A stretch of DNA of 64,000 nucleotides, taken from contig NZ_OY762974.1 of the NCBI RefSeq assembly GCF_963667135.1, forward strand, positions 62,001-126,000, written 5' to 3'. Each line of letters begins with the position of its first letter. The first letter of the stretch is position 1. A program made the position numbers and the translations under genes. The DNA comes from an uncultured Macellibacteroides sp. GTDB lineage: Bacteria; Bacteroidota; Bacteroidia; Bacteroidales; Tannerellaceae. Below, one piece after another: positions 17,606 through 50,633 of this stretch. The notes under the pieces were generated by a model that saw only the letters and a list, made by a program, of their open reading frames with translations, did not search any database and was not told the origin of the DNA.

Positions 17606-17642
17606 CATTTAATTTGTAATTTTGAAAACCAATAGGACAAAT

Positions 17643-19007: not shown

Positions 19008-19013
19008 AATAAG

Positions 19014-20315
19014 ATGAGAATAAAAGCTATGTTTTGGTTATTAACCGCATTGTTGTTGTCTCTTGCGGGCGTATTAAGTTACTTTGCTTTTTATTCTTCC
19101 TCGCGTATACTATTTTCTGCAGTGGAATTCCTAATAGTGCTAACTGCTGTTTATCTCTTGTATTTCTATCATCGAATTGTAAAGCCTCTATACATTATCG
19201 GCAACGGGATGGATTTACTAAAAGAACAGGATTTCAGTTCACGCCTGCGCAGGGTTGGTCAACCGGATGCCGATCGCATTGTGGATGTTTTCAATAAAAT
19301 GATGGAGCAACTTAAAAACGAACGGATACATATCCGGGAACAGAATCATTTTTTAGATCTGTTAATTAATGCGTCTCCTCTTGGTGTAATCATCCTAAAC
19401 CTCGACAGAAAGATCGTTTCGTTAAATCCTTCCGCGCGGGTTATCTTATCTCTGAAGCAAGAAGAGAATGTAGTTGGGAGGCGCTTATCCGAATTTGATT
19501 CTTTACTGGCTGCAGAGTTAGTTCGGCTTGAAATGGGAACTCCCCAAATAATCAGGCTGAACGACGCCAATATTTATAAGTGTACCCAATCTTCCTTTAT
19601 CGACAGTGGATTTCAGCATCCTTTTTATCTTATAGAAAGACTGACTCAGGAGGTGTTCAAGGCCGAAAAGAAAGCCTACGAAAAGGTGATACGGATGATT
19701 GCACATGAAGTGAACAACACAACTGCCGGCATTACATCCACACTCGACTCGATTGAAAACACATTCCGCGAGATGGAAAATTGTGAGGACCTTTGTGAAG
19801 TTATGCGAATATCCATCGAACGCTGTTACAGCCTTAGTCGTTTTATTACCAATTTTGCGGATGTGGTACGCATCCCTGACCCTCAGCTTCAAACATTAGA
19901 TTTAAATTTACTTCTTACTTCCGAAAGACGATTCATGGAGAATATTTGCTACAACCGCAACATTGAATTACTTCCATCCCTTAGTGAATCACCTCTTTAT
20001 GTAAAAGCCGACAGTGTTTTACTGGAACAGGTATTGCTTAATATTATTAAAAATGCCGCCGAATCCATTGGAGATCATGGAAAAATTTACATCCATACGT
20101 TCACAAATCCTATTTGCATAGAAATTGCCGACACAGGAAAAGGAATTGATAAAGATACCGAATCCCGTCTCTTCACCCCCTTCTTCTCCACTAAACCCAA
20201 CGGACAAGGAATAGGCCTCATCTTTATTCGAGAAGTTCTTCACAAACATAACTGTACTTTTTCCCTTCGTACCGATACAGATGGCTTAACCCGCTTTCGG
20301 ATTCTATTTCCTTAA
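19014..20315 (+). CDS. Membrane sensor histidine kinase, partner of the NtrC-type regulator
   Basis: 433 residues. Two N-terminal membrane segments (about 7-27 and 33-52) are separated by only a few residues, so there is almost no periplasmic sensor loop; sensing may occur in the membrane or via the transporter. A HAMP-like region (about 53-108) and a PAS domain (about 109-205, LLINASPLGVIILNLDRKIVSLNPSA) follow. The phospho-acceptor is His231 in the H-box MIAHEVNN, and the ATPase domain has N-box IIKNAAES, G1 DTGKGID and G2 GQGIGL. The short-loop arrangement resembles intramembrane-sensing kinases linked to ABC exporters of antimicrobial compounds; that parallel is inference. Confidence 0.92.
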   Translation: MRIKAMFWLLTALLLSLAGVLSYFAFYSSSRILFSAVEFLIVLTAVYLLYFYHRIVKPLYIIGNGMDLLKEQDFSSRLRRVGQPDADRIVDVFNKMMEQLKNERIHIREQNHFLDLLINASPLGVIILNLDRKIVSLNPSARVILSLKQEENVVGRRLSEFDSLLAAELVRLEMGTPQIIRLNDANIYKCTQSSFIDSGFQHPFYLIERLTQEVFKAEKKAYEKVIRMIAHEVNNTTAGITSTLDSIENTFREMENCEDLCEVMRISIERCYSLSRFITNFADVVRIPDPQLQTLDLNLLLTSERRFMENICYNRNIELLPSLSESPLYVKADSVLLEQVLLNIIKNAAESIGDHGKIYIHTFTNPICIEIADTGKGIDKDTESRLFTPFFSTKPNGQGIGLIFIREVLHKHNCTFSLRTDTDGLTRFRILFP

Positions 20316-20489
20316 ATACTTTGTATACTCAAACAGGAGTAATAGGGTTTAAAAGTCATTTTACTATTTTGTAGTAATTTTTACTGTTATTCGTATGATA
20401 ATTGTAAAAAATACACTTAATTTGCAAAACCTGATAATCAGCAGAGAAAACCTTGAAAATGTTGACTTTAATTTAATATCACTATACTT

Positions 20490-22484
20490 ATGAAAAAGCA
20501 CATCACATTTATTATTTGGCTTTTATGCAGCCATATCGTTATTGGAGCAGGCAAATCTTACATTCTTAAATCTCCGGACGGAAAACTGGAGGTAGCAGTA
20601 ACTGTAGACAAGCAAATTACTTATTCCTTGACACATGAAGGGCAGTTATTACTGGATAAAAGTGCCATCGCCTTGGTATTGGCCGATGGGAAAGAATCAG
20701 TATTAGGTAATAATGCACGCGTAAAAGGGAACAAAAACCGATCCATTACGGAAAAAATTGTATCTCCCAATTATCGTGTTCGTTCATTTACAACCAGTTT
20801 TAATGAGATTAACCTGAATTTCGATGGTAACTTCGGCTTGGTTTTTCGTGTTTACAACGAAGGTGTGGCTTATCGCTTCAATACAAATTTCAAAAACACA
20901 GTTGAAATTAAGGACGAAGTAGCCGAATTTAACTTTGACAAAGATTATACAACTTATATGGCGTATTCAACTTCTTCCAGTGAGAAAGATCTTTACGCCA
21001 TGGCTTTTCAAAATTTATACGCAAAAGCTACACTTACAAATGCCAATAAAGAAAATGTAGCTTTTCTTCCGGTTACTGTAGATTATGCAAACGGTAAGAA
21101 ACTGACGATAACAGAATCCGACCTGGAAGCTTACCCCGGAATGTTTGTAAAAGGTGACGGCAAAAAAACTGCCTTGAAAGGTGTGTTCGCCGCATATCCT
21201 TCACGAATGGATTATCGTCCATGGCGGCGTATGAGTTATGTGGCTGAACGGAGTAATGTGATTGCCAAAACAGAAGGAAAACGTTCATATCCTTGGCGCA
21301 TTCTGGCTGTTTCAGAAAATGATGTGGATATGCCTGTTAACAATCTTGTGTATGCGCTGGCTTCTCCTAACCGTATAGGGGACTACTCTTGGGTGAAATC
21401 CGGCAAAGTTGCCTGGGATTGGTGGAACAACTGGGGCATATACGGTGTAGATTTCAAAGCAGGCATCAATATGGATACCTATAAATATTATATTGACTTT
21501 GCATCAGAAAAAGGTATTCCATTTATCATTCTGGATGAAGGTTGGTACAATCCAAAGGCTGGAGATATGCTGACTGTTATACCAGAACTGAATTTACCCG
21601 AACTTGTTCGTTACGGAAAGAGCAAAAAAGTGGATATAATTCTTTGGACTGTGTTTAATGTTCTGGACGATCAGCTGGAAGAGGCTTGCAAGAAATATTC
21701 TGAGATGGGGATCTGTGGTTTTAAAGTAGATTTTCTTGATCGCGATGATCAAACTGGCGTTGAAATGGTCTATCGCATTGCGGAAACTACTGCCAAATAT
21801 AAATTATCGCTTGATCTTCACGGTATTTATAAGCCAACCGGACTTAACCGCACCTACCCGAATATCATTAATTTTGAAAGTGTCTTTGGCATGGAAGAGG
21901 TTAAATGGAGTACTGCCGAAAAAGATATGATGCTGTATGACGTAACGATGCCTTATATCCGGATGATGGCAGGTCCGATTGATTACACTCCCGGGGCAAT
22001 GCGCAATGCGTCTAAGAAAAACTTCAAACCTGTCTATAATAATCCGATGAGCCAGGGAACACGATGTCATCAACTGGCTACCTATATCGTACATGACTCT
22101 CCACTGACTATGCTTGCCGATAATCCTTCTATTTACAAAAGCGAGCCGGAATGTACTGATTTCATTACCAGTATCCCGAACACCGGAATTGAAAAGACGG
22201 TTGTTCTTCAGGGAACTTTGGGGGAATATATTGTTACTGCCCGCTGTGTAGGTTCGGATTGGTATATTGGTGGTATAACCAATTGGGATGCCCGTAATAT
22301 TACACTGGATTTTTCTTTCCTTGACAATGGAGAATATGCTGCCGTTTTGTTTAAGGACGGGGTTAATGCCGATGAACAAGCCTTTGATTATAAAAAAGAA
22401 GCGATGAAGATTACAGCACAGAGCAAACTTACAGTCCGGATGGCTTCGGGAGGTGGTTTTGCAATTTCTTTACGGAAAATTTGA
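20490..22484 (+). CDS. GH97 glycoside hydrolase, retaining type (alpha-galactosidase-like)
   Basis: 664 residues with a signal peptide (about 1-20). N-terminal GH97 beta-sandwich (about 22-290), TIM barrel (about 300-560), C-terminal sheet domain. GH97 splits into inverting enzymes (SusB-like, Glu base) and retaining enzymes with an Asp nucleophile in KVDF. Here KVDFLDRDD gives Asp414, and Glu469 in GMEEVKW fits the acid/base; as I recall, the characterised retaining alpha-galactosidase BtGH97b uses Asp415 and Glu470. The protein is therefore predicted to be a retaining alpha-galactosidase or alpha/beta-L-arabinopyranosidase of the periplasm, not a SusB-type glucosidase. It starts a four-gene run with two GH127 genes and a prolyl peptidase, where an alpha-galactosidase could remove serine-linked galactose from extensin. 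Confidence 0.93.
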   Translation: MKKHITFIIWLLCSHIVIGAGKSYILKSPDGKLEVAVTVDKQITYSLTHEGQLLLDKSAIALVLADGKESVLGNNARVKGNKNRSITEKIVSPNYRVRSFTTSFNEINLNFDGNFGLVFRVYNEGVAYRFNTNFKNTVEIKDEVAEFNFDKDYTTYMAYSTSSSEKDLYAMAFQNLYAKATLTNANKENVAFLPVTVDYANGKKLTITESDLEAYPGMFVKGDGKKTALKGVFAAYPSRMDYRPWRRMSYVAERSNVIAKTEGKRSYPWRILAVSENDVDMPVNNLVYALASPNRIGDYSWVKSGKVAWDWWNNWGIYGVDFKAGINMDTYKYYIDFASEKGIPFIILDEGWYNPKAGDMLTVIPELNLPELVRYGKSKKVDIILWTVFNVLDDQLEEACKKYSEMGICGFKVDFLDRDDQTGVEMVYRIAETTAKYKLSLDLHGIYKPTGLNRTYPNIINFESVFGMEEVKWSTAEKDMMLYDVTMPYIRMMAGPIDYTPGAMRNASKKNFKPVYNNPMSQGTRCHQLATYIVHDSPLTMLADNPSIYKSEPECTDFITSIPNTGIEKTVVLQGTLGEYIVTARCVGSDWYIGGITNWDARNITLDFSFLDNGEYAAVLFKDGVNADEQAFDYKKEAMKITAQSKLTVRMASGGGFAISLRKI

Positions 22485-22533
22485 TTTTAAATACAGATCT
22501 GGAATTATTATAATATAAAAAACCATTTAGTTT

Positions 22534-24987
22534 ATGTCTGGAAAAATTCTATTGGCATCTGCCCTTACAATTGGCTTTTGGGCTTGTAACCTGTCTCCTG
22601 TTAAGAAGGCTTCTACAGAACCTATCATTGAAGTTCCTTTTGCAGAGGTTCATCTAACGGATAATTTCTGGTCTCCACGTATAGAAGTGAATCGGACTGT
22701 TTCCATTCCTTCTGCTTTTAAGCAGTGTGAGATAAACGGACGCTTCGACAACTTTGCATTGGCCGGGGGACTAATTAAAGGGGAACACAAAGGTGATTTT
22801 CCTTTTGATGATACCGATCCGTACAAAATAATTGAGGGTGCCTCCTACTCGCTCGCTGTAAAATATGATCCAAAACTGGATGCTTACCTGGATAGCGTTA
22901 TCACATTAATTGACGCAGCGCAGGAGCCCGATGGTTATCTGACCACCTGTGTTACCAATAAGTGTACGCGACTTACAGGTTGGTGGGGTACTCAACGGTG
23001 GGAAAAGATTAATAGTCATGAATTATATAATTGCGGGCATTTATATGAAGCAGCTGTTGCACATTATCAGGCAACGGGCAAACGTACGTTGTTAAGTGTT
23101 GCAATCAAAAACGCGGATCTTATTTGTAAGGTGTTTGGTCCGGCAGAAGGACAAAAACATGTTCCATCCGGACATCCTATTGTAGAAATGGGATTAACAA
23201 AGATGTATAAAGCGACCGGTGATAAAAAATACCTTGATCTGGCCCGCTACTTTGTGGAAGAAACCGGACGGGGAACAGATGGTCATCGCCTGAATGCGTA
23301 TAGTCAGGACCACAAACCGATTCTGCAACAGGAAGAAATAGTTGGACATGCTGTACGTGCCGGTTATCTGTTTTCTGGCGTTGCAGATGTAGCAGCTCTT
23401 ACAAAAGATACTGCCTATTTTAATGCCATCTGCCGTATATGGAATAATATGGCGACAAAGAAACTTTATATAACTGGAGGAATCGGATCACGCGCTCAAG
23501 GTGAAGGTTTTGGTCCTGAATATGAATTGCATAATCACAGTGCCTATTGCGAAACCTGTGCAGCTATTGCCAATGTATATTGGAATCAGCGGATGTTCCT
23601 GGCTACCGGAAATGCCAAATATATAGATGTATTGGAACGTGCTTTATATAATGGTGTAATATCCGGAGTATCACTAAGCGGCGACAAGTTCTTCTACGAC
23701 AACCCGTTGGAATCCATGGGCCAGCACGAACGAGCCCCGTGGTTTGGTTGCGCTTGTTGTCCGGGTAACATCACACGATTTATGGCTTCTGTACCTAAGT
23801 ATGTGTATGCAACACAGGAAAACAGCGTGTTTGTGAATTTATATGTTGCCAGCCAAAGCAAAATTACGGTTGGTAAAGATACGTTGGAACTAAAACAGAC
23901 AACCGATTATCCCTGGGATGGAGCCGTTAAGCTGACAGTAAACACCAAAAGCGCTGCAACTTTCGGATTAAAGCTGCGTATTCCAGGTTGGGCTGGGAAA
24001 GAACCGGTTCCGGGAAGCGATCTCTATACCTTTACAAAGGAATCAAGCCAAGCTTGGGCTGTTTCTATAAATGGAAAAACGTATAAAACTAAACCTTCTG
24101 ATGGATACATATGCATTGATCGGGAATGGAAAAATGGTGATGTGGTTGAGCTATCTTTACCGATGGAAGTACGCAGGGTAAAAGCTCATGAAAAGGTAGC
24201 TGCAAACAAAGGTCTGCTTGCAATAGAGAGAGGTCCGGTTATGTTTTGCCTGGAAGGCGTGGATCAGGCAGACAAACATGTTTTCAATAAATATATACCC
24301 GAAAACAGTAAGTTTACTTGTCTGTACGAGAAGGATAAACTGAATGGCATTATGGAATTGAGTGGTTCGGCCAAAGAATTGGAACGTACAACAGATGGTA
24401 AAGTTACAGAAAAGAATGTCTCTGTTAAATTAATTCCCTATTCTACCTGGAATAACAGAGGTAATGCTGAGATGGCTGTATGGATTCCGGCTTCGGCTGA
24501 TTATTCCCGACCTACTCCTGAGACAAGTATTTCTTCCCGTGCAAAATCATTTACAATTGTAAGTGCGCCAATTCAGAAAGATGGAATTGCAAAAGAACGC
24601 AGAGAATGGTGTTACGGGGTAAACGATCAGTGGGATCCGAAAAATTCGGGAGATATGTCCAAGCCTTATCATTATTTCTGGTTAAAAGAGGGATCGGAAG
24701 AGGCAATTGAATATGTGTTTGATAGCCCGGAAACGGTAAGAAATGCCCAGGTTTACTGGCTGGATTTTGATCATTACGACGGCAATTACCGCGTTCCAGC
24801 CAGTTGGAAAATTCAATACAAAGCAGGTAACACTTGGAAGGATGTAGATGCTAAAGGTACATACGGATGTAAAAAAGACACTTACAATTCCGTGGATTTC
24901 AACCCTGTGAAAACAACCGGACTTAAACTGGTTATTGTATTGCAGAATGGTGAATCAGGAGGTGTAATTGAATGGAAAGTGAATTAA
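22534..24987 (+). CDS. GH127-family beta-L-arabinofuranosidase (first copy)
   Basis: 817 residues. The N-terminus (ASALTIGFWACNL) looks like a lipoprotein signal with Cys18. The (alpha/alpha)6 barrel covers about 40-430, then two beta domains, and a C-terminal domain of about 130 residues resembling F5/8-type (EYVFDSPETVRNAQVYWLDFD). All catalytic residues recalled for Bifidobacterium HypBA1 are present at an offset near +2 for the first part: acid/base Glu324 (GEGFG), zinc ligands Glu340 and Cys342 (CETC), nucleophile Cys408 and ligand Cys409 (GCACCP). The reaction is retaining release of beta-L-arabinofuranose, classically from hydroxyproline-linked arabino-oligosaccharides. GH146 shares these motifs and cannot be excluded. 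A second copy follows after 33 bp. Confidence 0.93.
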   Translation: MSGKILLASALTIGFWACNLSPVKKASTEPIIEVPFAEVHLTDNFWSPRIEVNRTVSIPSAFKQCEINGRFDNFALAGGLIKGEHKGDFPFDDTDPYKIIEGASYSLAVKYDPKLDAYLDSVITLIDAAQEPDGYLTTCVTNKCTRLTGWWGTQRWEKINSHELYNCGHLYEAAVAHYQATGKRTLLSVAIKNADLICKVFGPAEGQKHVPSGHPIVEMGLTKMYKATGDKKYLDLARYFVEETGRGTDGHRLNAYSQDHKPILQQEEIVGHAVRAGYLFSGVADVAALTKDTAYFNAICRIWNNMATKKLYITGGIGSRAQGEGFGPEYELHNHSAYCETCAAIANVYWNQRMFLATGNAKYIDVLERALYNGVISGVSLSGDKFFYDNPLESMGQHERAPWFGCACCPGNITRFMASVPKYVYATQENSVFVNLYVASQSKITVGKDTLELKQTTDYPWDGAVKLTVNTKSAATFGLKLRIPGWAGKEPVPGSDLYTFTKESSQAWAVSINGKTYKTKPSDGYICIDREWKNGDVVELSLPMEVRRVKAHEKVAANKGLLAIERGPVMFCLEGVDQADKHVFNKYIPENSKFTCLYEKDKLNGIMELSGSAKELERTTDGKVTEKNVSVKLIPYSTWNNRGNAEMAVWIPASADYSRPTPETSISSRAKSFTIVSAPIQKDGIAKERREWCYGVNDQWDPKNSGDMSKPYHYFWLKEGSEEAIEYVFDSPETVRNAQVYWLDFDHYDGNYRVPASWKIQYKAGNTWKDVDAKGTYGCKKDTYNSVDFNPVKTTGLKLVIVLQNGESGGVIEWKVN

Positions 24988-25020
24988 GAGTACAAAACAA
25001 AATAGCTTAAATTGAATAGC

Positions 25021-27417
25021 ATGAAAAATATACTGATAGCTGTATTGGCCGGATTCTGCCTTGCAGGTAGCGCACAGACGCACGACGGGGGATATCCCAT
25101 TTCTCCCGTTCCGTTCACTTCAGTAAAAGTAACCGATCATTTCTGGGGGCAACGGCTCAAAGCCAGTCGGGAAGTAACCATTCCACTTGCTTTCAGCAAA
25201 TGTGAAGAGACCGGGCGATATGATAATTTCTACAAAGCTGCACATCCCAGTGCGGAATACAAAGTGGAAGGTTATCCGTTTGATGATACAGATGTATACA
25301 AAACCATCGAAGGAGCAAGCTACTCCATGCAAACCTATCCGGACAAAAAGCTTGATAAATATATAGACAGCGTGCTTACCGTTGTTGCTGCTGCCCAGGA
25401 ACCAGACGGCTATCTTTATACAGCACGCACTATGAATCCGGCACATCCCCACGAATGGTCAGGGACTTCTCGCTGGGAAAAAGTGGAAGACCTCAGTCAT
25501 GAGTTCTATAATCTGGGTCATATGGTAGAAGGAGCCATTGCTCATTATCAAGCTACAGGGAAAAAGAATTTCCTTAACATAGCAATAAAATATGCCGACT
25601 GCGTAGAGCGTGAAATAGGAAATAAACCCAATCAGCTCATTCGTGTTCCGGGTCATCAGATTGCAGAGATGGCATTGGCTAAGCTTTATCTTGTAACCGG
25701 ACAGAAAAAGTATCTTGATCTTGCTAAGTTTTTCCTGGATAAGCGGGGATACACGACGCGAAAGGATATATACAGTCAGGCTAACAAACCTGTTTTGGAA
25801 CAGGACGAGGCTGTAGGTCATGCAGTTCGTGCAGCCTATATGTATTCCGGGATGGCAGATGTGGCTGCACTTACAGGAGATACAGGTTATATACATGCCA
25901 TAGATAAAATATGGGACAATGCGACTACAAAGAAACTCTATATTACCGGAGGTATCGGTGCAACCAGCAACGGGGAAGCTTTTGGCGAAAATTACGAACT
26001 GCCTAATATGTCCGCCTATTGCGAAACCTGCGCAGCCATTGGAAACGTGTACTGGAACTACCGGTTGTTTCTTCTTCACGGTGAGTCCAAATACTTCGAT
26101 GTACTGGAGAGGGCCTTGTACAATGGGTTGATTTCGGGTGTATCGCTGGACGGAGGAAGCTTCTTTTACCCTAATCCGCTGGAATCAATTGGTCAGCACC
26201 AGCGCCAGCCTTGGTTTGGATGTGCTTGTTGTCCATCCAACATCAGCCGTTTCATTCCTTCCCTTCCGGGCTATGTATACGCTGTAAACAAAAACGATCT
26301 TTACGTAAATCTTTTTATGAGCAATACATCCGACATGAAAGTAAACGGTAAAAAAGTAACACTTACCCAAACTACAGGATATCCATGGAGCGGAGATATA
26401 CGCATGGAGGTTTCTCCAAAAGGAAAACAGTCGTTCACATTAAAAATCCGTATTCCGGGTTGGGTACAGGGATCGGTTGTTCCGGGCAATTTGTACTCCT
26501 ACACGGATCGTAAGCAATTAGGATATAAAGTAAAAGTAAACGGAGAACTGGTATACGCGACTTTAGACAAAGGCTACTTCAATATTGCAAGGCAATGGAA
26601 AAAGGGAGATGTGGTTGAAGTTCATTTTGATATGGAGCCACGAACCGTAAAGGCTAATTCTAAAGTGGAAGCGGATCGGGGAAAGATTGCAGTGGAACGT
26701 GGACCAGTTGTTTATTGCGCCGAATGGCCTGATAACGATTTCAGTGTACTAAGTGTAATCATTAACCGCAAGCCTGAGTTTATTGTGGAATGTAAACCGG
26801 AATTATTGTATGGAATCGATCAACTGAAGACTTCTGCACAAACAATTGCCTATGATGAGCAGGGTCGCCTTACTACAAAGGATGTAACACTTACTCTGAT
26901 TCCATATTATACCTGGGCACATCGCGGTAGCGGAGAGATGGCTGTCTGGTTGCCGCAAGATGTAAATGCTACTCGTCCCTCACAACCTGTCACAATTACT
27001 TCGAAAGCAAAAGTATCTGCTTCAACCCTGATAAAATCTATCTCCGCCATCAACGACGGACTAACACCAAAAGATGAAAACGATCGTTCTGTACCCTATT
27101 ATCATTGGTGGCCAAAGGAAGGAACAACGGAATGGATTTGTTACGAGTTTGATCAGCCTCAGCAGCTATCCTTCAGCACAATTTATTGGTTTGACGATGC
27201 TCCATGGGGAGGTTGCCGCGTTCCGAAAAGCTGGAAACTCTTTTATAAAGACAACTCAGGAAACTGGCAACCGGTAAATGCCCTGTCCGCTTACGGAACA
27301 GAGAAAGGAGAAGGCAACACAGTCCGCTTCTCGCCAGTTACAACTTCTGCCATCAAGCTGGAAGTTGTTCAGCAGGAAAAAAATGCATCCGGATTGTTTG
27401 AATGGACAGTAGACTAA
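25021..27417 (+). CDS. GH127-family beta-L-arabinofuranosidase (second copy)
   Basis: 798 residues from the ATG at 25021 (the in-frame TTG at 25012 would only add three residues before a good signal peptide, MKNILIAVLAGFCLAGSAQ). Same domain order as the preceding gene and similar throughout, but with a cleaved signal peptide rather than a clear lipobox. Catalytic set: acid/base Glu319 (NGEAFGENYE), CETC at 334-337 (Glu335, Cys337), GCACCP with Cys403 as nucleophile and Cys404. The C-terminal carbohydrate-binding-like domain contains WFDDAPWGGCRVPKSWKLFYKD. Two diverged copies in tandem suggest division of labour, for example on different linkages or chain lengths of arabinofuranosyl chains. 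Followed by a prolyl-type peptidase 15 bp downstream. Confidence 0.93.
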   Translation: MKNILIAVLAGFCLAGSAQTHDGGYPISPVPFTSVKVTDHFWGQRLKASREVTIPLAFSKCEETGRYDNFYKAAHPSAEYKVEGYPFDDTDVYKTIEGASYSMQTYPDKKLDKYIDSVLTVVAAAQEPDGYLYTARTMNPAHPHEWSGTSRWEKVEDLSHEFYNLGHMVEGAIAHYQATGKKNFLNIAIKYADCVEREIGNKPNQLIRVPGHQIAEMALAKLYLVTGQKKYLDLAKFFLDKRGYTTRKDIYSQANKPVLEQDEAVGHAVRAAYMYSGMADVAALTGDTGYIHAIDKIWDNATTKKLYITGGIGATSNGEAFGENYELPNMSAYCETCAAIGNVYWNYRLFLLHGESKYFDVLERALYNGLISGVSLDGGSFFYPNPLESIGQHQRQPWFGCACCPSNISRFIPSLPGYVYAVNKNDLYVNLFMSNTSDMKVNGKKVTLTQTTGYPWSGDIRMEVSPKGKQSFTLKIRIPGWVQGSVVPGNLYSYTDRKQLGYKVKVNGELVYATLDKGYFNIARQWKKGDVVEVHFDMEPRTVKANSKVEADRGKIAVERGPVVYCAEWPDNDFSVLSVIINRKPEFIVECKPELLYGIDQLKTSAQTIAYDEQGRLTTKDVTLTLIPYYTWAHRGSGEMAVWLPQDVNATRPSQPVTITSKAKVSASTLIKSISAINDGLTPKDENDRSVPYYHWWPKEGTTEWICYEFDQPQQLSFSTIYWFDDAPWGGCRVPKSWKLFYKDNSGNWQPVNALSAYGTEKGEGNTVRFSPVTTSAIKLEVVQQEKNASGLFEWTVD

Positions 27418-27432
27418 AATGAAACTAAGTAT

Positions 27433-29544
27433 ATGAAAAAGACAATGATGCTGACTGTACTTTGTGCCGGGTTATCCGGCACACTGTTGCAGGCGCAAGG
27501 TACAGCAAATGACTATGCCCGTGCATATTCTTTACCTGGAAAATATAATAAAGCAGTATATTATGGGGATGTAAATCCCCGATGGCTGGGAGATACACAC
27601 CAATTCTGGTATATACGCAACACGCCTGAAGGCGAAAAGTATGTCATCGTTGATGCCGCGAATAAGACAAGCACCGCCATGCCCGACACCATGAAGCAAC
27701 GTATCCTATCTATAGAGAAAGCTCCTCGGCCCTCCCGTTACTGGGGAGAAATGGATGAAGAACGTACCGGTGATTCCATTCCTTCTCCCGACGGAAAACG
27801 CATTGGTTTTATCAAAAACAACAACGTATATGTGAGGGAAATTGCATCCGGAGCAGAAAAGGCACTCAGTATGGATGGAGCTCCGGGAGAATATTATTCT
27901 GCTTATCTTCGCTGGTCACCCGATTCAAAGAAGATAGCTTCCATGAAGATCCGACCTGCCGAGAAACAATATATTTACTTTGTTGAATCGTCTCCCAAAG
28001 ATCAGCTGCAACCTAAACTTCATAAAAGGGAGTATGTAAAACCTGGTGATGCACTGCCTTTCCGCGTTCCTCATATCTTTTATGTGGAAAACGGCGAAAA
28101 GAAAGTGCCTTCAACCAATCTTTTTTCTTCACAGTTTGATGTTCACGGACTAGACTGGGCACCCGACAGCAAAAGTCTGCTTTTTGATTACAACCAGCGT
28201 GGTCATCAGGTGTACCGTGTGCTGGAACTTTCTGCCGAAACAGGGAGTGTCCGTACAATTATTGAAGATACCAGTAATACATTTGTAAATTACAACCGTC
28301 AGTTTCGAAAAGATCTGTCCAACGGAAAAGAGATAGTCTGGATGAGCGAACGCGATAACTGGAACCATCTTTATTTGTATGATCGTCTGGAAGGTAAAGT
28401 TAAACGACAAATAACCAAGGGCGAATGGTATGTGCGCGATGTAATAGAAGTAGACGAAAAAGACCGTGTCATCTATTTCTCTGCCAATGGAATGGTTAAA
28501 AATGAAGATCCTTATTTGGTCCGTTATTATCGTATCAATATGGACGGTACAGGGCTTACCTGCCTTACTCCGGAAGAAGGAACGCATACAGCCTGGTTTT
28601 CGTCTGATAAAAAATACCTGGTAGATGTATGGTCAAAAATTGACGTAGCACCTAAAGCTGTATTACGTAGCAGCGTTAATGGAAAAGTAGTTATGCCACT
28701 CGAAGAAGCGGACATTACTGCTTTAAAGGAATCCGGATGGAAAGCTCCGGAAACATTTGTGGCTAAAGGCCGGGACGGCAAAACAGATATATGGGGTGCT
28801 ATTTTCCGTCCTACTAATTTTGATCCGAATAAAAAATATCCGGTTTTGGAATATGTTTACGCAGGTCCCGGAAGCGCTTATACACCAAAAGCTTTCCGCG
28901 CGTTTTACTGGTTTCATCAACAGATTGCGGAACTGGGATTTATAGTTGTTCAGGCTGATGGTATGGGAACTTCGTTTCGTAGCAAGGCCTTTGAGAGTAT
29001 CATTTATAAAAATTTAAAAGATGCCGGATTTGAGGATCGCATGGCATGGATAAAAGGTGCCGCTCAAAAATATCCGTATATGGATATGGAACGTGTGGGA
29101 ATCTTTGGAGGTTCTGCCGGAGGACAGGAAGCGATGGCTGCAGTTTTGTTTCATCCCGACTTTTATAAAGCGGCATATGCCGGGTGCGGATGCCACGATA
29201 ACAGGATGGATAAAATGTGGTGGAACGAACAATGGTTAGGGTATCCGACCGACAGTAGCTATGTGGCTTGCAGCAATGTAGAGAATGCCGGCTTATTAAG
29301 CCGTCCTTTAATGCTAATGGTAGGAGAAATGGATGACAATGTTGATCCGGCTTCCACCATGCAGGTAGTTAACGCACTGATAAAAGCAAAAAAAGAGTTT
29401 GAACTTGTGGTCGTTCCAGGCAGCAACCACACCTTGGGTGGAGAGTACGGAGACCGTAAGCGTTTCGACTTTTTTGTGAAACATCTGCTTGGTGTAACAC
29501 CGCCGGACTGGAACAATGAGGAGGTTGCCTTAAAAATAAGGTAA
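27433..29544 (+). CDS. Secreted S9-family (dipeptidyl peptidase IV/prolyl oligopeptidase-like) serine peptidase
   Basis: 703 residues with signal peptide (about 1-21). A beta-propeller of the DPPIV N-terminal type (about 40-430) is followed by an alpha/beta hydrolase peptidase domain (about 450-690). Catalytic triad: Ser561 in GGSAGG, Asp634 or Asp635 in GEMDDNVDP, His666 in GSNHTLG. Family S9 cleaves short peptides after proline or alanine. I do not see the YEEE motif that anchors the free N-terminus in classical DPPIV, so strict dipeptidyl release is not certain. Its position between arabinofuranosidases and a hydroxyproline-metabolising enzyme suggests it trims proline/hydroxyproline-rich peptides. 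Its stop codon is one base from the stop codon of the convergent activase gene. Confidence 0.92.
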   Translation: MKKTMMLTVLCAGLSGTLLQAQGTANDYARAYSLPGKYNKAVYYGDVNPRWLGDTHQFWYIRNTPEGEKYVIVDAANKTSTAMPDTMKQRILSIEKAPRPSRYWGEMDEERTGDSIPSPDGKRIGFIKNNNVYVREIASGAEKALSMDGAPGEYYSAYLRWSPDSKKIASMKIRPAEKQYIYFVESSPKDQLQPKLHKREYVKPGDALPFRVPHIFYVENGEKKVPSTNLFSSQFDVHGLDWAPDSKSLLFDYNQRGHQVYRVLELSAETGSVRTIIEDTSNTFVNYNRQFRKDLSNGKEIVWMSERDNWNHLYLYDRLEGKVKRQITKGEWYVRDVIEVDEKDRVIYFSANGMVKNEDPYLVRYYRINMDGTGLTCLTPEEGTHTAWFSSDKKYLVDVWSKIDVAPKAVLRSSVNGKVVMPLEEADITALKESGWKAPETFVAKGRDGKTDIWGAIFRPTNFDPNKKYPVLEYVYAGPGSAYTPKAFRAFYWFHQQIAELGFIVVQADGMGTSFRSKAFESIIYKNLKDAGFEDRMAWIKGAAQKYPYMDMERVGIFGGSAGGQEAMAAVLFHPDFYKAAYAGCGCHDNRMDKMWWNEQWLGYPTDSSYVACSNVENAGLLSRPLMLMVGEMDDNVDPASTMQVVNALIKAKKEFELVVVPGSNHTLGGEYGDRKRFDFFVKHLLGVTPPDWNNEEVALKIR

Positions 29545-29545
29545 T

Positions 29546-30457
29546 CTATCCCCCTATTACTGCATCGATCCCATATTGTTTGAATAGGCTGATGCAACGT
29601 TGCTGAGTTTCCACTGAAGGCGTACTCATCTTTACATTTCCGGGATTATAAACAGATCCAAGTTTTTCGTGTTTGTTTTTGCCTATATCGTGGTAAAGAA
29701 GGAGATTTACTCTCTTTCTTTTCCACGGCAGGCAAGAAAGGAATTGCGCGCAGCGCAGGATGTTTTCTTCATCAGCATTTATTCCTTCTATAAGGGGAAT
29801 ACGGATGAAAAAATCTTTACCTGCTTCTGCAATCATTTTCAAATTTGACAGGATGAGTTCGTTTGGTACTCCGCAATACCGTTGATGAAGTTCGGTATCC
29901 ATGTGCTTTAAGTCGACCAAAAAAAGTTCTGTATGAAGCATAATGGTTTTGACTATTTCCGGGCGGGCGTATAAAGAGGTATCTACAGTCCGGTGAATAC
30001 CCTGTTCTCCGCACCGATGAAGCAATTCCGATAATAATTCCGGATGTAGTAACGGTTCTCCGCCACAGAAAGTAACTCCACCTTCAGACTGATCCATAAA
30101 AACAATTTCTTTTTCAATCTCTTTCATGATCGAATCTGCAGTATATTCTTTACCGGAAATCTCCATAGCCATGGACGGACAAACCTCCGTACATATACCA
30201 CAGCGTATGCAAAGTTCCTTTTCAGTAGCAATTCCTTCAGTCGACAATTTCAACGCATGTTGCGGACATGCATTGATGCAAATCAGACAACCAATGCATT
30301 TTTTCCGGGTATACAGTTTTTCAGCCCGGCTTGAAATTCCCTCCGGATTATGGCACCAGATACACGACAGCGGGCATCCTTTTATAAAGAGAGTTATCCG
30401 GATACCCGGACCGTCGTTTATCGAATATCGTTTAATATCAAATAACAAGTCTTTCAT
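29546..30457 (-). CDS. hypE: Radical SAM glycyl-radical-enzyme activase (partner of HypD-like enzyme)
   Basis: 303 residues. The radical SAM motif is CPLSCIWC (Cys28, Cys32, Cys35), preceded by FDIKRYSINDGPGIRITLFIKG, typical of PflA-like activases. A ferredoxin-type insert carries two extra [4Fe-4S] sets, Cys54-57-60-64 and Cys83-86-89-93, as in activases of non-PFL glycyl radical enzymes. VTFCGGEPLLHPE is the conserved GGEP segment for SAM binding. It installs the glycyl radical on the enzyme encoded one base upstream in the same operon, using SAM and reduced cluster chemistry in the cytoplasm under anaerobic conditions. The symbol is given by pairing with the HypD-like enzyme. Confidence 0.92.
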   Translation of the reverse strand: MKDLLFDIKRYSINDGPGIRITLFIKGCPLSCIWCHNPEGISSRAEKLYTRKKCIGCLICINACPQHALKLSTEGIATEKELCIRCGICTEVCPSMAMEISGKEYTADSIMKEIEKEIVFMDQSEGGVTFCGGEPLLHPELLSELLHRCGEQGIHRTVDTSLYARPEIVKTIMLHTELFLVDLKHMDTELHQRYCGVPNELILSNLKMIAEAGKDFFIRIPLIEGINADEENILRCAQFLSCLPWKRKRVNLLLYHDIGKNKHEKLGSVYNPGNVKMSTPSVETQQRCISLFKQYGIDAVIGG

Positions 30458-30458
30458 A

Positions 30459-32846
30459 TCAGAAGGTCTCTTGTTCGGTACGGGCTATTACGTCAGCCTG
30501 CAAATCCGCATTCATATCGTTAAAGTAATCGCTGTATCCGGCTACACGGACCAATAAATCACGGTACTCTTCCGGACGCTGCTGGGCGGCATGTAACGTT
30601 TCCGTATCAACTATATTGAACTGAATATGGTGACCACCTAATGAGAAATAGGTACGAATCAAGGCACATAGCTTGATGATATCTTCTTCCCGTTTAAGCA
30701 TAGCCGGCATAAAGCGCTGGTTCAATAGGGTACCGCCGCTTTTTACCTGATCCAGTTTTCCCAAAGACTTAATAACAGAAGACGGCCCGTGGGTATCTGC
30801 TCCGTGAGAAGGAGAAGTACCATCGGAGATAGCACGTCCGGCAAGCCTTCCGTTTGGAGTTGCACCCATTACTTTACCAAAATAAACATGACAAGTGGTT
30901 GAGAGCATGTTTAAGTGAAAACATTCGCCCTTTGTATTTGGCTTTCCTTCAATGGCATCATACAAATCGTTGAACACATTCACGGCAATGCTATCTGCAT
31001 AATCATCGTCGTTTCCAAAAAATGGCGTACGGTTTAAAATAAGCAAACGCAAGGGCTCTTGATTTTCAAAATTGGCATCTATGGCGTTCAGCATTTCATT
31101 CATTGTAACCAACCGGTTTTCGAACACATGTTTTTTCAAAGCGGACAAACTATCGGTTATTGTTCCAAGACCGGTACACTGAATATAAGTTGTGTTGTAT
31201 CGCGGTCCACAATTATAGTAGTCCTTGCCTTTGGCAATACAGTCGTCGATAAACAACGAAAGAAAAGGAGCCGGAGCATATTTGGCAAACATACGGTCTA
31301 TGTAATTGCTCACCCGTACCTTCATATCCACAAAATAGTGAAGCTGTTTAATGAAAGCAGCATACAGGTCGTCGTAAGTATTGAAACTACAAGAATCGCC
31401 AGTCTCCAACCCAACCCTTCGTCCAGATACGGGATCAATGCCGTTATGCAAAGTCACTTCAAGAATCTTTGGCACATTAAGGTAACCGGTAAGCACATAG
31501 GCCTCCTTTCCAAATGCACCTACTTCAATACATCCGCTGCACCCACCTTCGCGGGCATCAAGCAGGGATTTACCCTGACGCATTAACTCCTGTACGTAAA
31601 CATCCGGATTAAAAACAGAAGGATAACCATGTCCCTGACGAATTACCTTACAGCCTGCACGAAGAAACCGTTCCGGTGTTCGGGTACTTATATGGATTGC
31701 GCTACCTGGCTGAAGGATATGCAATTCCTCTATTGTCTCGAGCATAATATAAGACACTTCACTCACTCCATCGCTGCCATCACCTTTTATTCCGCCAATA
31801 TTCAGATTGGTAAAATCATTATAGGTACCACTTTCTTTTGCCGTAATACCCACCTTAGGAGGTGCAGTGTGGTTATTTACTTTAATAAAAAAACAAGACA
31901 TCAGCTCTTTCGCTTCATCGCGTGATAAAGTTCCGTCCTCTGTTTCCTTTTGGTAAAACGGAGCCAGATGTTGGTCAAAATGACCGGGGTTCATAGCATC
32001 CCAGCCGTTCAATTCGGTAATGGTACCCAAATGTACAAACCAATACATCTGAATCGCTTCCCAATAAGATCTGGGAGCATGAGCAGGGACCCAACGGCAT
32101 ACTTGAGCAATTTTATGAAGCTCGGCAATGCGTTTGGGATCTTTTTCCGTAAGAGCCATTTCTTCTGCCAGATCGGCATGGCGTTCGGCAAACAAAATGG
32201 CGGCATCACAGGAAACAGACATGGCCGTCAATTCTTCTTGCTTGTCTGTAGCCTCAGGATCATTCATAAAGTCGAGCGACGCCAGTTCGCCCTCTATTCG
32301 TTCCTTTAAATCGAGTAACCCATATTTGTAGACTTTGCCATCCAGCGAGGTATGTCCGGGTGCACGTTGCTCCATAAATTCGGTAAACATACCAATCTCA
32401 TAAGCCTCTTTCCACTCAGCTGGAACATGACTAAAGATACGTTCACGTTGTGTCCGGCCTTTCCAGTAAGGAATAACCTCGCGTTCGTACGTGTCGATAT
32501 CTTCCTGACTAATGGTGTATCGCTGCATTTCACGGGAATTCAGTATTTGCAAGTCTTCCACACTATGGCAAGTCAGCTCCGGAAAAGTCGGAACCGATTT
32601 AGGCTTCGGCCCCCGTTCTCCCACAATCAGCTCGTCGTCACCAATGTAAATCGCTTTATTTTTACATATTTCGAGAAAGTTGAGAGCTCTGAGAATAGGC
32701 ACTGGATATTTACCATAGTTATCTTTGTAGAAATTTGTTTCAATTAGCGCGCGTTCAATAGAAAGAGAGGGTGTTGATTCGAAAGAAAGTTGACGCAACC
32801 GTTTGATACGGTCGTTCATGCCATAATTATTTGTGGATGTATTCAT
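30459..32846 (-). CDS. hypD: Glycyl radical enzyme, predicted trans-4-hydroxy-L-proline dehydratase
   Basis: 795 residues. The radical site is Gly770 in RVAGYSDYF and the thiyl site Cys439 in GGCSGCIEVGAF with Glu441 two residues on, the C-x-E pattern of dehydratase-type enzymes rather than pyruvate formate-lyase (which has Cys-Cys). As I recall the Clostridioides difficile HypD structure, its active site is Phe152, His160, Asp278, Ser334, Asp339, Phe340, Cys434, Glu436, Tyr450, Thr645 and Gly765. This protein has Phe157, His165, Asp283, Ser339, Asp344, Phe345, Cys439, Glu441, Tyr455, Thr650 and Gly770: the same residue at +5 in every case. It should dehydrate trans-4-hydroxy-L-proline to pyrroline-5-carboxylate, which ProC reduces to proline. 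No proC is in the window. It is unrelated to the hydrogenase-maturation HypD. Confidence 0.9.
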   Translation of the reverse strand: MNTSTNNYGMNDRIKRLRQLSFESTPSLSIERALIETNFYKDNYGKYPVPILRALNFLEICKNKAIYIGDDELIVGERGPKPKSVPTFPELTCHSVEDLQILNSREMQRYTISQEDIDTYEREVIPYWKGRTQRERIFSHVPAEWKEAYEIGMFTEFMEQRAPGHTSLDGKVYKYGLLDLKERIEGELASLDFMNDPEATDKQEELTAMSVSCDAAILFAERHADLAEEMALTEKDPKRIAELHKIAQVCRWVPAHAPRSYWEAIQMYWFVHLGTITELNGWDAMNPGHFDQHLAPFYQKETEDGTLSRDEAKELMSCFFIKVNNHTAPPKVGITAKESGTYNDFTNLNIGGIKGDGSDGVSEVSYIMLETIEELHILQPGSAIHISTRTPERFLRAGCKVIRQGHGYPSVFNPDVYVQELMRQGKSLLDAREGGCSGCIEVGAFGKEAYVLTGYLNVPKILEVTLHNGIDPVSGRRVGLETGDSCSFNTYDDLYAAFIKQLHYFVDMKVRVSNYIDRMFAKYAPAPFLSLFIDDCIAKGKDYYNCGPRYNTTYIQCTGLGTITDSLSALKKHVFENRLVTMNEMLNAIDANFENQEPLRLLILNRTPFFGNDDDYADSIAVNVFNDLYDAIEGKPNTKGECFHLNMLSTTCHVYFGKVMGATPNGRLAGRAISDGTSPSHGADTHGPSSVIKSLGKLDQVKSGGTLLNQRFMPAMLKREEDIIKLCALIRTYFSLGGHHIQFNIVDTETLHAAQQRPEEYRDLLVRVAGYSDYFNDMNADLQADVIARTEQETF

Positions 32847-32967
32847 TGTAGTAAGAATGAAAATTATTGATAATAAACAGCGGAAGGAAGCATCACCTCC
32901 AATAACGCAGAGGTGGAATCAGGAAGTTTAATGATAAAACATCAAACAGTTAAAAAGTCGTCTGTAA

Positions 32968-33024
32968 TTTTTACAAGACATACGCTGATTATTAATAGCT
33001 AAGAACAATTATCGCTTGTAAAAA
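32968..33024. promoter_or_regulatory. 10-bp inverted repeat TTTTTACAAG...CTTGTAAAAA at the hypD promoter
   Basis: Arms at 32968-32977 and 33015-33024 are perfect reverse complements with 37 bp between them. The outer arm sits just downstream of the -7 box at 33027-33034, overlapping the expected transcription start near 33020. A split operator for a regulator is the simplest reading; a weak RNA stem is the alternative. Confidence 0.45.
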
Positions 33025-33026
33025 TA

Positions 33027-33034
33027 CAAAAATA
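33027..33034 (-). promoter_or_regulatory. Predicted -7 box (TATTTTTG) for the hypD-like operon
   Basis: Minus strand reads TATTTTTG, matching TAnnTTTG. A TTTG at 33052-33049 is too close (14 bp) to be a standard -33 element. The site lies directly next to one arm of the inverted repeat described separately. Confidence 0.4.
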
Positions 33035-33051
33035 GATCTAGTTGATTTCAA

Positions 33052-33085
33052 ATCTCTTCTTTTTTTGTAATAAAAAAGAAGAGAT
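33052..33085 (-). terminator. Intrinsic terminator after the ModF-like gene
   Basis: A 14-bp perfect stem (ATCTCTTCTTTTTT and its complement) closes a 6-nt loop. Read on the minus strand, the stem ends in a U-rich arm, placing it 66 bp after the stop of the ModF-like gene and before the hypD promoter. The stem is A/T-rich, so strength is uncertain; it could work in both directions. Confidence 0.6.
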
Positions 33086-33151
33086 ATGAAAAGAAATGAT
33101 CAGACTATAGAAGTTCATCTCAAATTAATAGCAGATGATGCCAATGCTGAT

Positions 33152-34615
33152 CTATTTATTCTTTGTCAGAACAAGTTGTTTATCCACCACGTTCGGAATT
33201 TCATTCTGATAATGAGTAACATAGATAAGCGATTTTTCTCCGTCGCAAAAATCTTCCAATATCTTTTTTACCCGGTTCTTATTGACCACATCAAGACCGT
33301 GCAAGGGCTCGTCCAGTATCAACAATTCAGGGTTCTTAACCAACGCACGGGCCAGCAACAGTAATCGTTGTTCGCCCGAAGATACTTTCTGAAAGGAAAC
33401 TTCAGTGAGGTGAACAACATTAAATACCATCATCCATTCTTTCGCAAGCATCTCCTGTTCCGTGGTGCACTTTCTATACAAACCTATTGTATCAAAAAAA
33501 CCAGAGCTAACCACATTCAGGCATTTCACATTATTTTGATAATAAAGATGCATTTCCGGAGAAACATACCCTATGTGCTTTTTAATATCCCAGATACTCT
33601 CTCCAGAACCTCGTTTACGATCAAAAAGTGTGATGTCGTTGGCGTACGCCTGCGGATTATCTCCGCAAATAAGACTTAGTAAGGTAGACTTTCCGGAGCC
33701 ATTCGGACCCAGCAAAGCCCATTTCTCTCCACGTTGCACAGTCCAATCCAACTTGTTCAAAATTGTACGTGAACCATACTTTATATGAATATTCTTAAGA
33801 ATAGCCGCATTTGAAAAGGAAAAAGAGTCATTGCCTGAACAACTTTTCAACTCAGTCAGATCCGATGTTTCGGTCTTTGGGAACAAATTACTGACCACGG
33901 ACTCCGATTCAAAGAAAAATTGACGCGACATGGGTATAAATAGTTGTTTGTCTTTTATAGGCAACACATCCGTTATAATATCCGGAATATCCTGCGGATT
34001 ACAAAGGAGCAGTACAATTTGCAGATTATCAAGTTCAGACAACCGGACTAACAAGTCATTCAGTACCTTACGGGAAGCTGCATCAAGTCCTAAGAACGGG
34101 TTATCCAAAATTAAAATACGGGGCTTGGATAACAATGAGCGAACAATAAGAAACTTACGTAACTCTCCGCTAGAAAGCAGGTTCACCTCTTTCTCCATTA
34201 AATCTTCGATACCAAACCAATCCAACAAGGTATTCAGCCACTTCTGGTCAGCATTCAAAACAAGATCTTTAACGAAAGGAATACACTGTTCATCCCCCCT
34301 ATTCCAACGCTGCTGATAATAACCGTTTTCCGTATCGATTATGCTGTAAAGATCGCGAAAAGCAACACATTTTACCACCGACGAAACAAACATATCCGTA
34401 CCCATTTCATCTTTGCAAATAACCGTACCCGTTTTAAGTGCGTACTTTCCAAGCAGCATATCTACGAATAGCGTTTTTCCACCACCGTTCGGCCCAACAA
34501 TTGCCCAGTGCTGTCCTTCTTTCATCTGCCAGCAAAGAGGTTCACTAAATTTCAAGTAATCAAAACGGGGAGTTGCATCTTTAATCTCAATCAATATTCT
34601 TGCTTTCTGTTCCAT
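33152..34615 (-). CDS. Tandem ABC ATPase, ModF/PhrA-like
   Basis: 487 residues containing two complete ATP-binding cassettes and no membrane segments. First cassette: Walker A GPNGGGKT (41-48), signature LSSGELRK (about 147-154), Walker B ILILDN. Second cassette: Walker A GPNGSGKST (about 300), signature VSSGEQRL, Walker B LLILDEP. Length and arrangement match Escherichia coli ModF (also called PhrA, about 490 residues), whose role beside molybdate transport is unclear. No modABC genes are nearby. The signature sequences have S in place of the second G of LSGGQ, as seen in ModF-like proteins. It appears to be a single-gene unit with its own promoter and terminator. Confidence 0.85.
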   Translation of the reverse strand: MEQKARILIEIKDATPRFDYLKFSEPLCWQMKEGQHWAIVGPNGGGKTLFVDMLLGKYALKTGTVICKDEMGTDMFVSSVVKCVAFRDLYSIIDTENGYYQQRWNRGDEQCIPFVKDLVLNADQKWLNTLLDWFGIEDLMEKEVNLLSSGELRKFLIVRSLLSKPRILILDNPFLGLDAASRKVLNDLLVRLSELDNLQIVLLLCNPQDIPDIITDVLPIKDKQLFIPMSRQFFFESESVVSNLFPKTETSDLTELKSCSGNDSFSFSNAAILKNIHIKYGSRTILNKLDWTVQRGEKWALLGPNGSGKSTLLSLICGDNPQAYANDITLFDRKRGSGESIWDIKKHIGYVSPEMHLYYQNNVKCLNVVSSGFFDTIGLYRKCTTEQEMLAKEWMMVFNVVHLTEVSFQKVSSGEQRLLLLARALVKNPELLILDEPLHGLDVVNKNRVKKILEDFCDGEKSLIYVTHYQNEIPNVVDKQLVLTKNK

Positions 34616-34632
34616 TTCACTAATTTAAATCA

Positions 34633-34640
34633 CAAATGTA
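34633..34640 (-). promoter_or_regulatory. Predicted -7 box (TACATTTG) for the ModF-like gene
   Basis: Minus strand TACATTTG matches TAnnTTTG, 18 bp before the ATG at 34615. The expected leader is only about 11 nt. Confidence 0.45.
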
Positions 34641-34784
34641 GCTTAATATCTTTAAGCCTGAATAATAAAAGTTTCATTTTATTCACCAGGTATAGTCTAA
34701 TAAGTTATAGAAATTACAAGTAACACTATTGAAATTTCTATCAAATTCAGGGATATAAATGTTGATTATTTAATATAGAATATA

Positions 34785-34792
34785 TACTTTTG
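34785..34792 (+). promoter_or_regulatory. Predicted -7 box (TACTTTTG) for the small lipoprotein gene
   Basis: Plus strand TACTTTTG matches TAnnTTTG. The expected start near 34799 is incompatible with translation from the in-frame TTG at 34790 and supports the ATG at 34820. Confidence 0.5.
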
Positions 34793-34819
34793 AGAACTAA
34801 TCAAGTAACATCTCTGTTT

Positions 34820-35266: not shown

Positions 35267-35317
35267 CAGATAGATCCTAGCTTAATAAATAACACTATGG
35301 ATAGAACTTATTAAAAT

Positions 35318-35357
35318 AAAAAAGGTCATTTCCTTTAGATGGGAAATGACCTTTTTT
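35318..35357. terminator. Bidirectional intrinsic terminator between convergent genes
   Basis: A 16-bp perfect stem (arms 35318-35333 and 35342-35357) with an 8-nt loop, A-tract on the left and T-tract on the right. It ends transcription of the small lipoprotein (plus) and the GH29 gene (minus), whose stops lie 52 and 15 bp away. Confidence 0.9.
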
Positions 35358-35371
35358 ATGTTAACTATCTT

Positions 35372-36793: not shown

Positions 36794-36822
36794 ATTTTAC
36801 AATAATCCTTTTATTTTGATAG

Positions 36823-36830: not shown

Positions 36831-36842
36831 CACATAACACAG

Positions 36843-42694: not shown

Positions 42695-42707
42695 TAGTAC
42701 TTGTTTT

Positions 42708-50613: not shown

Positions 50614-50633
50614 TCGCTTTATTGTATTTATCA

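What the first reader, a model, noticed from the sequence alone, without database searches (positions are those of the whole stretch)
20490..32846. Possible extensin/hydroxyproline-glycoprotein catabolism locus
Six adjacent genes form a logical route for hydroxyproline-rich plant glycoproteins. A retaining GH97 (alpha-galactosidase type) could remove the alpha-galactose that extensins carry on serine. Two GH127 enzymes with complete HypBA1-type active sites remove beta-L-arabinofuranose, the sugar attached to hydroxyproline. A secreted prolyl-type S9 peptidase could trim the exposed Pro/Hyp peptide. The convergent operon encodes a glycyl radical enzyme with the full HypD active site and its activase, which would consume free hydroxyproline. 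The two operons end one base apart. Known: each family's chemistry. Inference: that they act together, linking deglycosylation, proteolysis and amino-acid fermentation in one locus. I know of GH127/GH121 clusters for the sugar part but not of one joined to HypD.
Basis: partly seen in the sequence, partly recalled or inferred. Interest (0 to 1): 0.88.

Follow-up and report, generated by a model that had tools for sequence, protein, structure and literature searches.

The report
Plant hydroxyproline-glycoprotein breakdown gene cluster
A gut bacterium related to Parabacteroides carries, side by side, genes that look able to strip sugars from hydroxyproline-rich plant proteins, cut the bared peptide and break down the released hydroxyproline; the exact arrangement is young, but similar pairings turn up again in distant relatives, which makes a real working link likely though not yet proven.

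Summary
The six genes are as described: GH97 retaining alpha-galactosidase, two GH127 enzymes with intact cysteine motifs, a secreted S9 peptidase and, convergent one base away, an activase (HypE) and HypD. HypD carries 12 of 13 residues taken from the C. difficile paper. In Tannerellaceae the halves live mostly apart. GH97-GH127-GH127-S9 is an operon shared with Parabacteroides, there with SusD, DUF6055 (a predicted zinc peptidase) and sometimes GH27; hypDE is a roaming cassette. The full junction was seen only in the window's species. Yet in an order-wide sample S9 lies within 5 kb of hypD in 6 of 44 genomes with both (0.18 expected; 0 of 52 for a control peptidase). One other genus joins hypED, SusC/D-like genes, GH97, S9, both GH127 and an M64 peptidase in one stretch, with a HypD only 53-54% identical. 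So the linkage has probably arisen repeatedly. Most likely this is a hydroxyproline-rich-glycoprotein catabolism locus. Extensin fits best; arabinogalactan protein is not excluded. I have no expression or enzyme data. Term searches of open-access papers listed none that joins HypD to such a locus.

The parts
20490..22484 (+). GH97 retaining alpha-galactosidase, secreted; proposed to remove alpha-galactose (Ser-linked in extensin)
   Evidence: NCBIfam NF053844 895 bits (cut-off 800); Ser-Gal role inferred
22534..24987 (+). GH127 enzyme a (lipoprotein-like), putative beta-L-arabinofuranosidase
25012..27417 (+). GH127 enzyme b, closest solved relative PDB 6ex6; putative beta-L-arabinofuranosidase
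27433..29544 (+). secreted S9 (DPPIV/prolyl-oligopeptidase-type) serine peptidase
29546..30457 (-). HypE-type radical SAM glycyl-radical-enzyme activase with two ferredoxin-like clusters
   Evidence: misses the HypD-activase equivalog cut-off
30459..32846 (-). [quoted passage not shown]

Best explanation
Two functional units that serve one food source lie end to end. The plus-strand operon acts outside the inner membrane on hydroxyproline-rich plant glycoproteins: GH97 removes alpha-galactose, the two GH127 enzymes remove beta-L-arabinofuranose, and the S9 peptidase trims the exposed proline/hydroxyproline peptide. Hyp-containing peptides or free Hyp enter the cell, free Hyp is dehydrated to pyrroline-5-carboxylate by HypD (activated by HypE), and ProC, encoded elsewhere, makes proline. 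Shown here: identity of the families, intact active-site motifs, the operon shared with Parabacteroides, repeated co-localisation with hypDE elsewhere. Inferred: substrates, transport, co-expression and that extensin is the preferred substrate.
For: Domain and residue evidence. In Parabacteroides relatives the orthologous operon sits with SusD, DUF6055 (HE[LMI]GH motif) and, in two of four, GH27; of 33 family loci opened around GH127b relatives, GH127a lies in 19 and S9 in 10, so sugars and peptide are handled together. In 392 order genomes S9 lies within 5 kb of hypD in 6 of 44 with both (expected 0.18) against 0 of 52 for a DPP4 paralogue (inputs). G217 and G467 (one genus, another family) have hypE-hypD, SusC- and SusD-like genes, GH97, S9, GH127b, M64 and GH127a, and a hybrid regulator upstream, cut in G467; GH43 and aminopeptidase P were seen in G217 only. 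Labilibaculum has hypD-hypE-GH97-DUF6055 on one strand. On the HypD tree the S9-linked label needs 7 changes, at least 6 forced by starred branches. ProC is present in the genome. The sister species G001 lacks HypD over cut-off and any GH127b or S9 match at E 1e-100 (GH97 not searched there).
Against: Within Tannerellaceae the full junction was seen in one species only. GH127-to-hypD linkage by itself is not significant in the order sample: 1 of 51 within 5 kb, 3 of 51 within 25 kb, P 0.06. Of the 8 order genomes with S9 within 25 kb of hypD, 3 (G208, G387, G225) showed no GH27, GH97, GH127 or GH43 in the stretch fetched, and the S9 of G387 is only 42% identical. In most HypD loci opened no such neighbour was found (the commonest neighbour cluster other than hypE is in 20 of 132), and Hyp also comes from collagen. 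Convergent operons; no SusCD in the window cluster.
Confidence: 0.6

Rival explanations
1. The plus-strand operon trims side chains of arabinogalactan proteins or gum arabic (beta-L-Araf and alpha-Gal caps), and hypDE is a neighbour by chance or uses Hyp from the same AGP cores.
For: GH127b's closest solved relative is 6ex6 (recalled to be BT3674); PMC10850190 (passages) reports BT3674 acting with galactanases on larch arabinogalactan; alpha-Gal-capped Ara is released from gum arabic (abstract start of PMC8939339). The window carries a GH42 and a GH78 12-15 kb past hypD.
Against: No galactanase, glucuronidase or rhamnosidase among the six genes; in relatives, where only recurrent or nearby genes were annotated, peptidases (S9, DUF6055, M64) recur instead.
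Confidence: 0.25
2. hypDE is a stand-alone cassette for free Hyp of any origin, mostly host or dietary collagen, and its position beside the GH operon is accidental.
For: hypDE roams: no neighbour cluster other than hypE in more than 20 of 132 loci; full junction seen in one species of the family; gut Hyp use is usually tied to collagen or extracellular matrix (PMC7919092 passages; PMC7077986 introduction).
Against: S9-hypD linkage is about 30 times expectation in other families and absent for a control peptidase; a stretch with SusC/D-like genes, GH97, GH127 and HypED exists elsewhere.
Confidence: 0.13
3. The plus-strand genes act on rhamnogalacturonan-II or other pectin.
For: GH127 also holds the aceric acid hydrolase BT1003 (PMC10850190 passages), and both window GH127 match that model, below its cut-off. 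GH78 and GH2, which pectin loci also use as I recall, occur elsewhere in the window.
Against: Both GH127 score about half the aceric-acid-hydrolase cut-off; GH78 and GH2 lie 14 kb or more from the cluster.
Confidence: 0.02

Closest known systems
Bifidobacterium longum HypBA cluster (GH121 HypBA2, GH127 HypBA1, a third enzyme, ABC importer) for Hyp-linked arabino-oligosaccharides
   Same: GH127 enzymes for beta-L-arabinofuranose of hydroxyproline-rich glycoproteins (PMC7263609 passages)
   Different: No GH121 or sugar ABC importer among the six genes; adds alpha-galactosidase, peptidase and HypDE, so the protein part is used too
Clostridial HypD-HypE hydroxyproline pathway
   Same: HypD with the same residues and a radical SAM activase
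   Different: [quoted passage not shown] here ProC is elsewhere in the genome and glycosidases and a peptidase are next door
Bacteroides thetaiotaomicron arabinogalactan loci with GH127 BT3674
   Same: GH127b is close to PDB 6ex6 (recalled as BT3674)
   Different: No galactanase among the six genes; a peptidase present; no SusCD in the window cluster. The arabinogalactan paper itself was not held

Membership tests
[quoted passage not shown]
   1178 bits, cut-off 1100
[quoted passage not shown]
   12 of 12 identical; list from passages of PMC7077986; a 13th named residue, D292, matches in none of 152 rows nor in C. difficile
[quoted passage not shown]
   needs an assay
HypD activase (HypE) | NCBIfam equivalog NF043069 cut-off | tested here: not met
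   336 bits, cut-off 425; the general activase model TIGR02494 is met. Called HypE-type by position and best score only
GH97 retaining alpha-galactosidase | NF053844 cut-off and nucleophile Asp | tested here: met
   895 bits, cut-off 800; Asp in KVDFLDRD aligned to the position that is Gly in 5e1q
GH127 beta-L-arabinofuranosidase | GH127 domains and the catalytic Cys motif | tested here: met
   motif roles recalled, PMC10850190 names a Cys nucleophile; activity not tested
GH127 aceric acid hydrolase (RG-II) | NF049879 cut-off | tested here: not met
   510 and 472 bits, cut-off 950
S9 prolyl/dipeptidyl peptidase | DPPIV_N propeller, S9 domain, Ser-Asp-His triad | tested here: met
   specificity for Pro or Hyp not tested
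Polysaccharide utilisation locus | SusC/SusD pair in the same cluster | tested here: not met
   none among the six genes or their direct neighbours; in relatives SusD in L177 and L178, SusC and SusD in L185, SusC- and SusD-like in L241 and L291
Bifidobacterial HypBA cluster | GH121 beta-L-arabinobiosidase next to GH127 | tested here: not met
   no GH121 among the six genes; the HypBA2 model scores 28 bits against cut-off 3200

The most novel reading that the evidence does not exclude
Bacteroidales have repeatedly assembled a hydroxyproline-rich-glycoprotein utilisation locus in which a polysaccharide-utilisation-type system (alpha-galactosidase, beta-L-arabinofuranosidases, surface receptors) is fused with proline-specific and zinc peptidases and a glycyl radical enzyme, so that sugars, peptide and hydroxyproline of extensins are all consumed; plant cell-wall protein would then be a main dietary source of the hydroxyproline that gut bacteria ferment.
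Probability: 0.5. Interest if true: 0.78.

Novelty: new variant of a known kind. Interest (0 to 1): 0.62.

Why it matters
HypD is described as one of the most abundant glycyl radical enzymes of the healthy human gut (PMC7077986 introduction), and the papers in which I read passages tie its substrate chiefly to collagen or extracellular matrix; one review mentions plant proteins in passing (PMC11574389). A locus that couples deglycosylation of plant hydroxyproline-rich proteins, peptide cutting and HypD would point to dietary plant cell-wall protein as a source, and would show a carbohydrate locus extended into radical amino-acid metabolism. It gives a testable substrate (extensin, potato lectin, Hyp-arabinosides) for GH127, S9, DUF6055 and M64 proteins.

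Tried and rejected
Rejected: that the exact window arrangement is a conserved Tannerellaceae locus. RG-II as substrate. GH127-hypD linkage as the main statistical support: not significant alone. GH97 near hypD in 4 of 132 HypD loci was not used as statistics: GH97 copies are probably common, and some of the 132 loci are the same contig fetched twice (for example L044 = L151, L050 = L157). A sigma-70 scan found fewer promoter-like sites than shuffles (25 against 37.0); a Bacteroides-type -7 motif (recalled) occurs upstream of hypD but not of GH97, weak and not used. Rfam and tRNA scans of the window: nothing. Structure of DUF6055: mean pLDDT 65.5 from 5 sequences; best PDB match an M1 aminopeptidase at query TM 0.29, too weak to use. 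The motif and PMC11241649, which places a DUF6055 protein in peptidase family M106 (one passage), remain the evidence. No solved relative of DUF6055 by sequence, and DUF6055 was not found in G000, G001 or G002. The named HypD set is the best 80 of 594 matches, so it leans to close relatives.

Caveats: the expectation assumes random placement in 4.0 Mb and ignores contig breaks; G217 and G467 share a genus; all four order searches scored at most two candidates per genome, so the GH127 genes of G446:C45 seen on opening L231 are not in the GH127 count; S9 at E 1e-100 includes relatives down to 36% identity. The control list was picked by me out: 52 of the 53 genomes that also have HypD (the place in G446 was not listed), plus the window's own and two without HypD. 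In the tree count only loci found through the S9 search were labelled linked; L079 and L083, where an S9 lies near hypD, counted as unlinked. One search covered only 67 of 132 loci because of an id-padding slip and was replaced.

Full report
WHAT IS THERE. The window lies at G000:C1:62001-126000 of a 4.46 Mb genome. The nearest named record is a Parabacteroides sp. MAG (98% HypD identity), labelled Tannerellaceae, whose contig is as long (99,881 bases) as the contig of the same-species genome G002. The six genes were confirmed by ORF calls, Pfam, NCBIfam and PDB sequence matches. Details, and the one curated cut-off that is missed (HypE), are in the observation check.

THE TWO HALVES LIVE MOSTLY APART IN THE FAMILY. 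HypD over cut-off occurs in 53 of 123 family genomes. I opened 132 HypD loci: 80 named ones and 52 of the 53 fetched; some contigs are in both sets, and 67 of the 132 have at least 7 kb on both sides. HypE is a neighbour in 122 of 132, and no other neighbour cluster reaches more than 20 of 132. Only L035, the window's own species, has the GH97-GH127-GH127-S9 orthologues beside hypDE; one Tannerella contig (L050 = L157) has a GH127 of 45% identity 6 kb from hypD. Conversely, 40 family loci around GH127 relatives were opened; 0 of 40 hold hypD. Of the 33 around GH127b relatives (L177-L209), 19 hold GH127a, 10 hold S9 and 6 hold a GH97 of 64% identity or more. In the Parabacteroides relatives G069, G040, G044 and G053 the order is SusD - DUF6055 - (GH27) - GH97 - GH127a - GH127b - S9; GH27 was seen in G069 and G053, SusD not in G053 (contig end), S9 not in G040. 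G074 and G075 add GH43; G005 has SusC-SusD-GH127a-GH127b-S9. The hypD of these seven genomes is on another contig, or in G075 about 98 kb away. The sister species G001 lacks HypD over cut-off and any GH127b or S9 match at E 1e-100; GH97 was not searched there.

YET THE PAIRING RECURS ELSEWHERE. In 392 sampled order genomes of at least 90% completeness, HypD (E 1e-200) is in 142 and the S9 (E 1e-100) in 66. Both occur in 44 genomes besides the window's own. S9 lies within 5 kb of hypD in 6 of 44 (G293, G387, G208, G225, G150, G446) and within 25 kb in 8 of 44 (adding G217, G467); random placement predicts 0.18 and 0.69. A DPP4 paralogue of the same peptidase family gave 0 of 52 and 1 of 52. GH127 alone gave 1 of 51 and 3 of 51, not significant (all; caveats in Tried and rejected). 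These loci contain: G446 S9, hypD, hypE and two GH127; G150 GH127, GH43, S9, hypE, hypD; G293 GH27, S9, hypD, hypE; G387 hypE, hypD, an S9 of 42% identity, aminopeptidase P, S37 and C69 peptidases; G225 and G208 S9, hypD, hypE and aminopeptidase P.

A NEAR-COMPLETE SECOND VERSION. G217 (L290, then L241) reads aminopeptidase P, a hybrid two-component regulator, hypE, hypD, a 369-residue protein without Pfam match, SusC-like, SusD-like, a BT_3987-like protein, GH97 (891 bits, over the alpha-galactosidase cut-off), S9, GH127b (72%), peptidase M64, GH127a (55%, opposite strand) and GH43, about 24 kb from hypE to GH43. G467, of the same genus, has hypE, hypD, SusC-like, SusD-like, GH97, S9, GH127b, M64 (87% identical) and GH127a over about 35 kb with other genes in between; GH43 and aminopeptidase P were not seen there. 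SusC and SusD there rest on similarity, not on a Pfam scan. Their HypD is only 53-54% identical to the window's, with the same 12 residues. Further cases among the named HypD loci: Labilibaculum (L076, L080) hypD-hypE-GH97-DUF6055 on one strand, the GH97 of L076 below the alpha-galactosidase cut-off (723 against 800); Gelidibacter (L083) GH97-DUF6055, aminopeptidase P and a weak S9 (26%) near hypDE; Perlabentimonas (L079) hypD-hypE-S9-aminopeptidase P, its S9 34% identical to the window's. Aminopeptidase P occurs in 10 of the 132 loci, L044 and L151 being one contig.

INDEPENDENCE. A FastTree of 152 HypD rows puts the window HypD among HypDs of its family and the other linked ones elsewhere; the label needs 7 changes, at least 6 forced by branches of 95% local support. 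Gains and losses are not told apart, and long branches (L238, L242, L233 and others) are uncertain.

HOW IT LIKELY WORKS. Extensin-type proteins carry Hyp with three beta- and one alpha-linked arabinofuranose (PMC7263609, passages) and alpha-galactose on Ser (recalled). GH97 or GH27, GH127 and, where present, GH43 match these bonds; S9, M24, M64 and DUF6055 match the peptide; HypD then ProC match free Hyp. Substrates are inferred from families. In the window, GH43, SusCD, DUF6055 and GH27 are not in the cluster, so outer-membrane uptake must use other genes or the enzymes act on fragments made by others. The two operons are convergent and may be regulated apart.

LITERATURE. Term searches of an open-access library listed no paper whose title or abstract start joins HypD with a polysaccharide-utilisation locus or GH127; two gave no paper at all. 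Most listed papers were seen as listings only; passages were read in seven and one section. Two papers I wanted, on hydroxyproline use by gut bacteria and on arabinogalactan degradation, were not held, so prior mention cannot be excluded.

VERDICT.

Noticed in passing
L231, L233, L238, L242, L288, L290, L291: These HypDs (49-54% identical to the window's) pair with a short activase of 260-280 aa that lacks the two ferredoxin-like clusters of the window HypE (303 aa); in these seven loci hypE lies upstream of hypD.
   Followed up: partly
L177:17412-18779, L076:15512-16882, L083:1346-2662, L059:4642-6996: DUF6055 proteins with a conserved HE[LMI]GH motif sit either in the GH97-GH127 operon or beside hypDE; PMC11241649 links DUF6055 to peptidase family M106.
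   Followed up: partly
L288:3911-13918: Peptidase island hypE-hypD-S9-aminopeptidase P-S37-C69 on one strand, a Hyp-peptide module in which no glycosidase of the sought families was found.
   Followed up: no
L231:6081-6932: Between S9 and hypD lies a 283-residue protein with a below-cut-off match to PF07737, a zinc-peptidase-like family (as recalled), beside an M24 prolidase-like gene.
   Followed up: no
L059:7564-8979 and L060:4716-6131: A sodium:alanine symporter family protein upstream of hypD beside DUF6055, a candidate amino-acid importer (Pfam for L059; L060's is 87% identical).
   Followed up: no
17622-20315: An NtrC-type response regulator (by its translation) and a sensor kinase end 174 bases upstream of GH97 on the same strand; their targets are unknown.
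   Followed up: no
44909-63205 and 20-6099: Carbohydrate loci at both ends of the window: GH42, GH78, two esterases, GH3, SusD, SusC and a carboxylesterase; and SusC, SusD and GH2.
   Followed up: no
40796-44702: Two adjacent DUF3857/DUF3858 proteins.
   Followed up: no
20000-38000: G+C is 0.41-0.45 across 21-33 kb and 0.34-0.39 just downstream (33-38 kb), a mild difference that could reflect acquisition.
   Followed up: no
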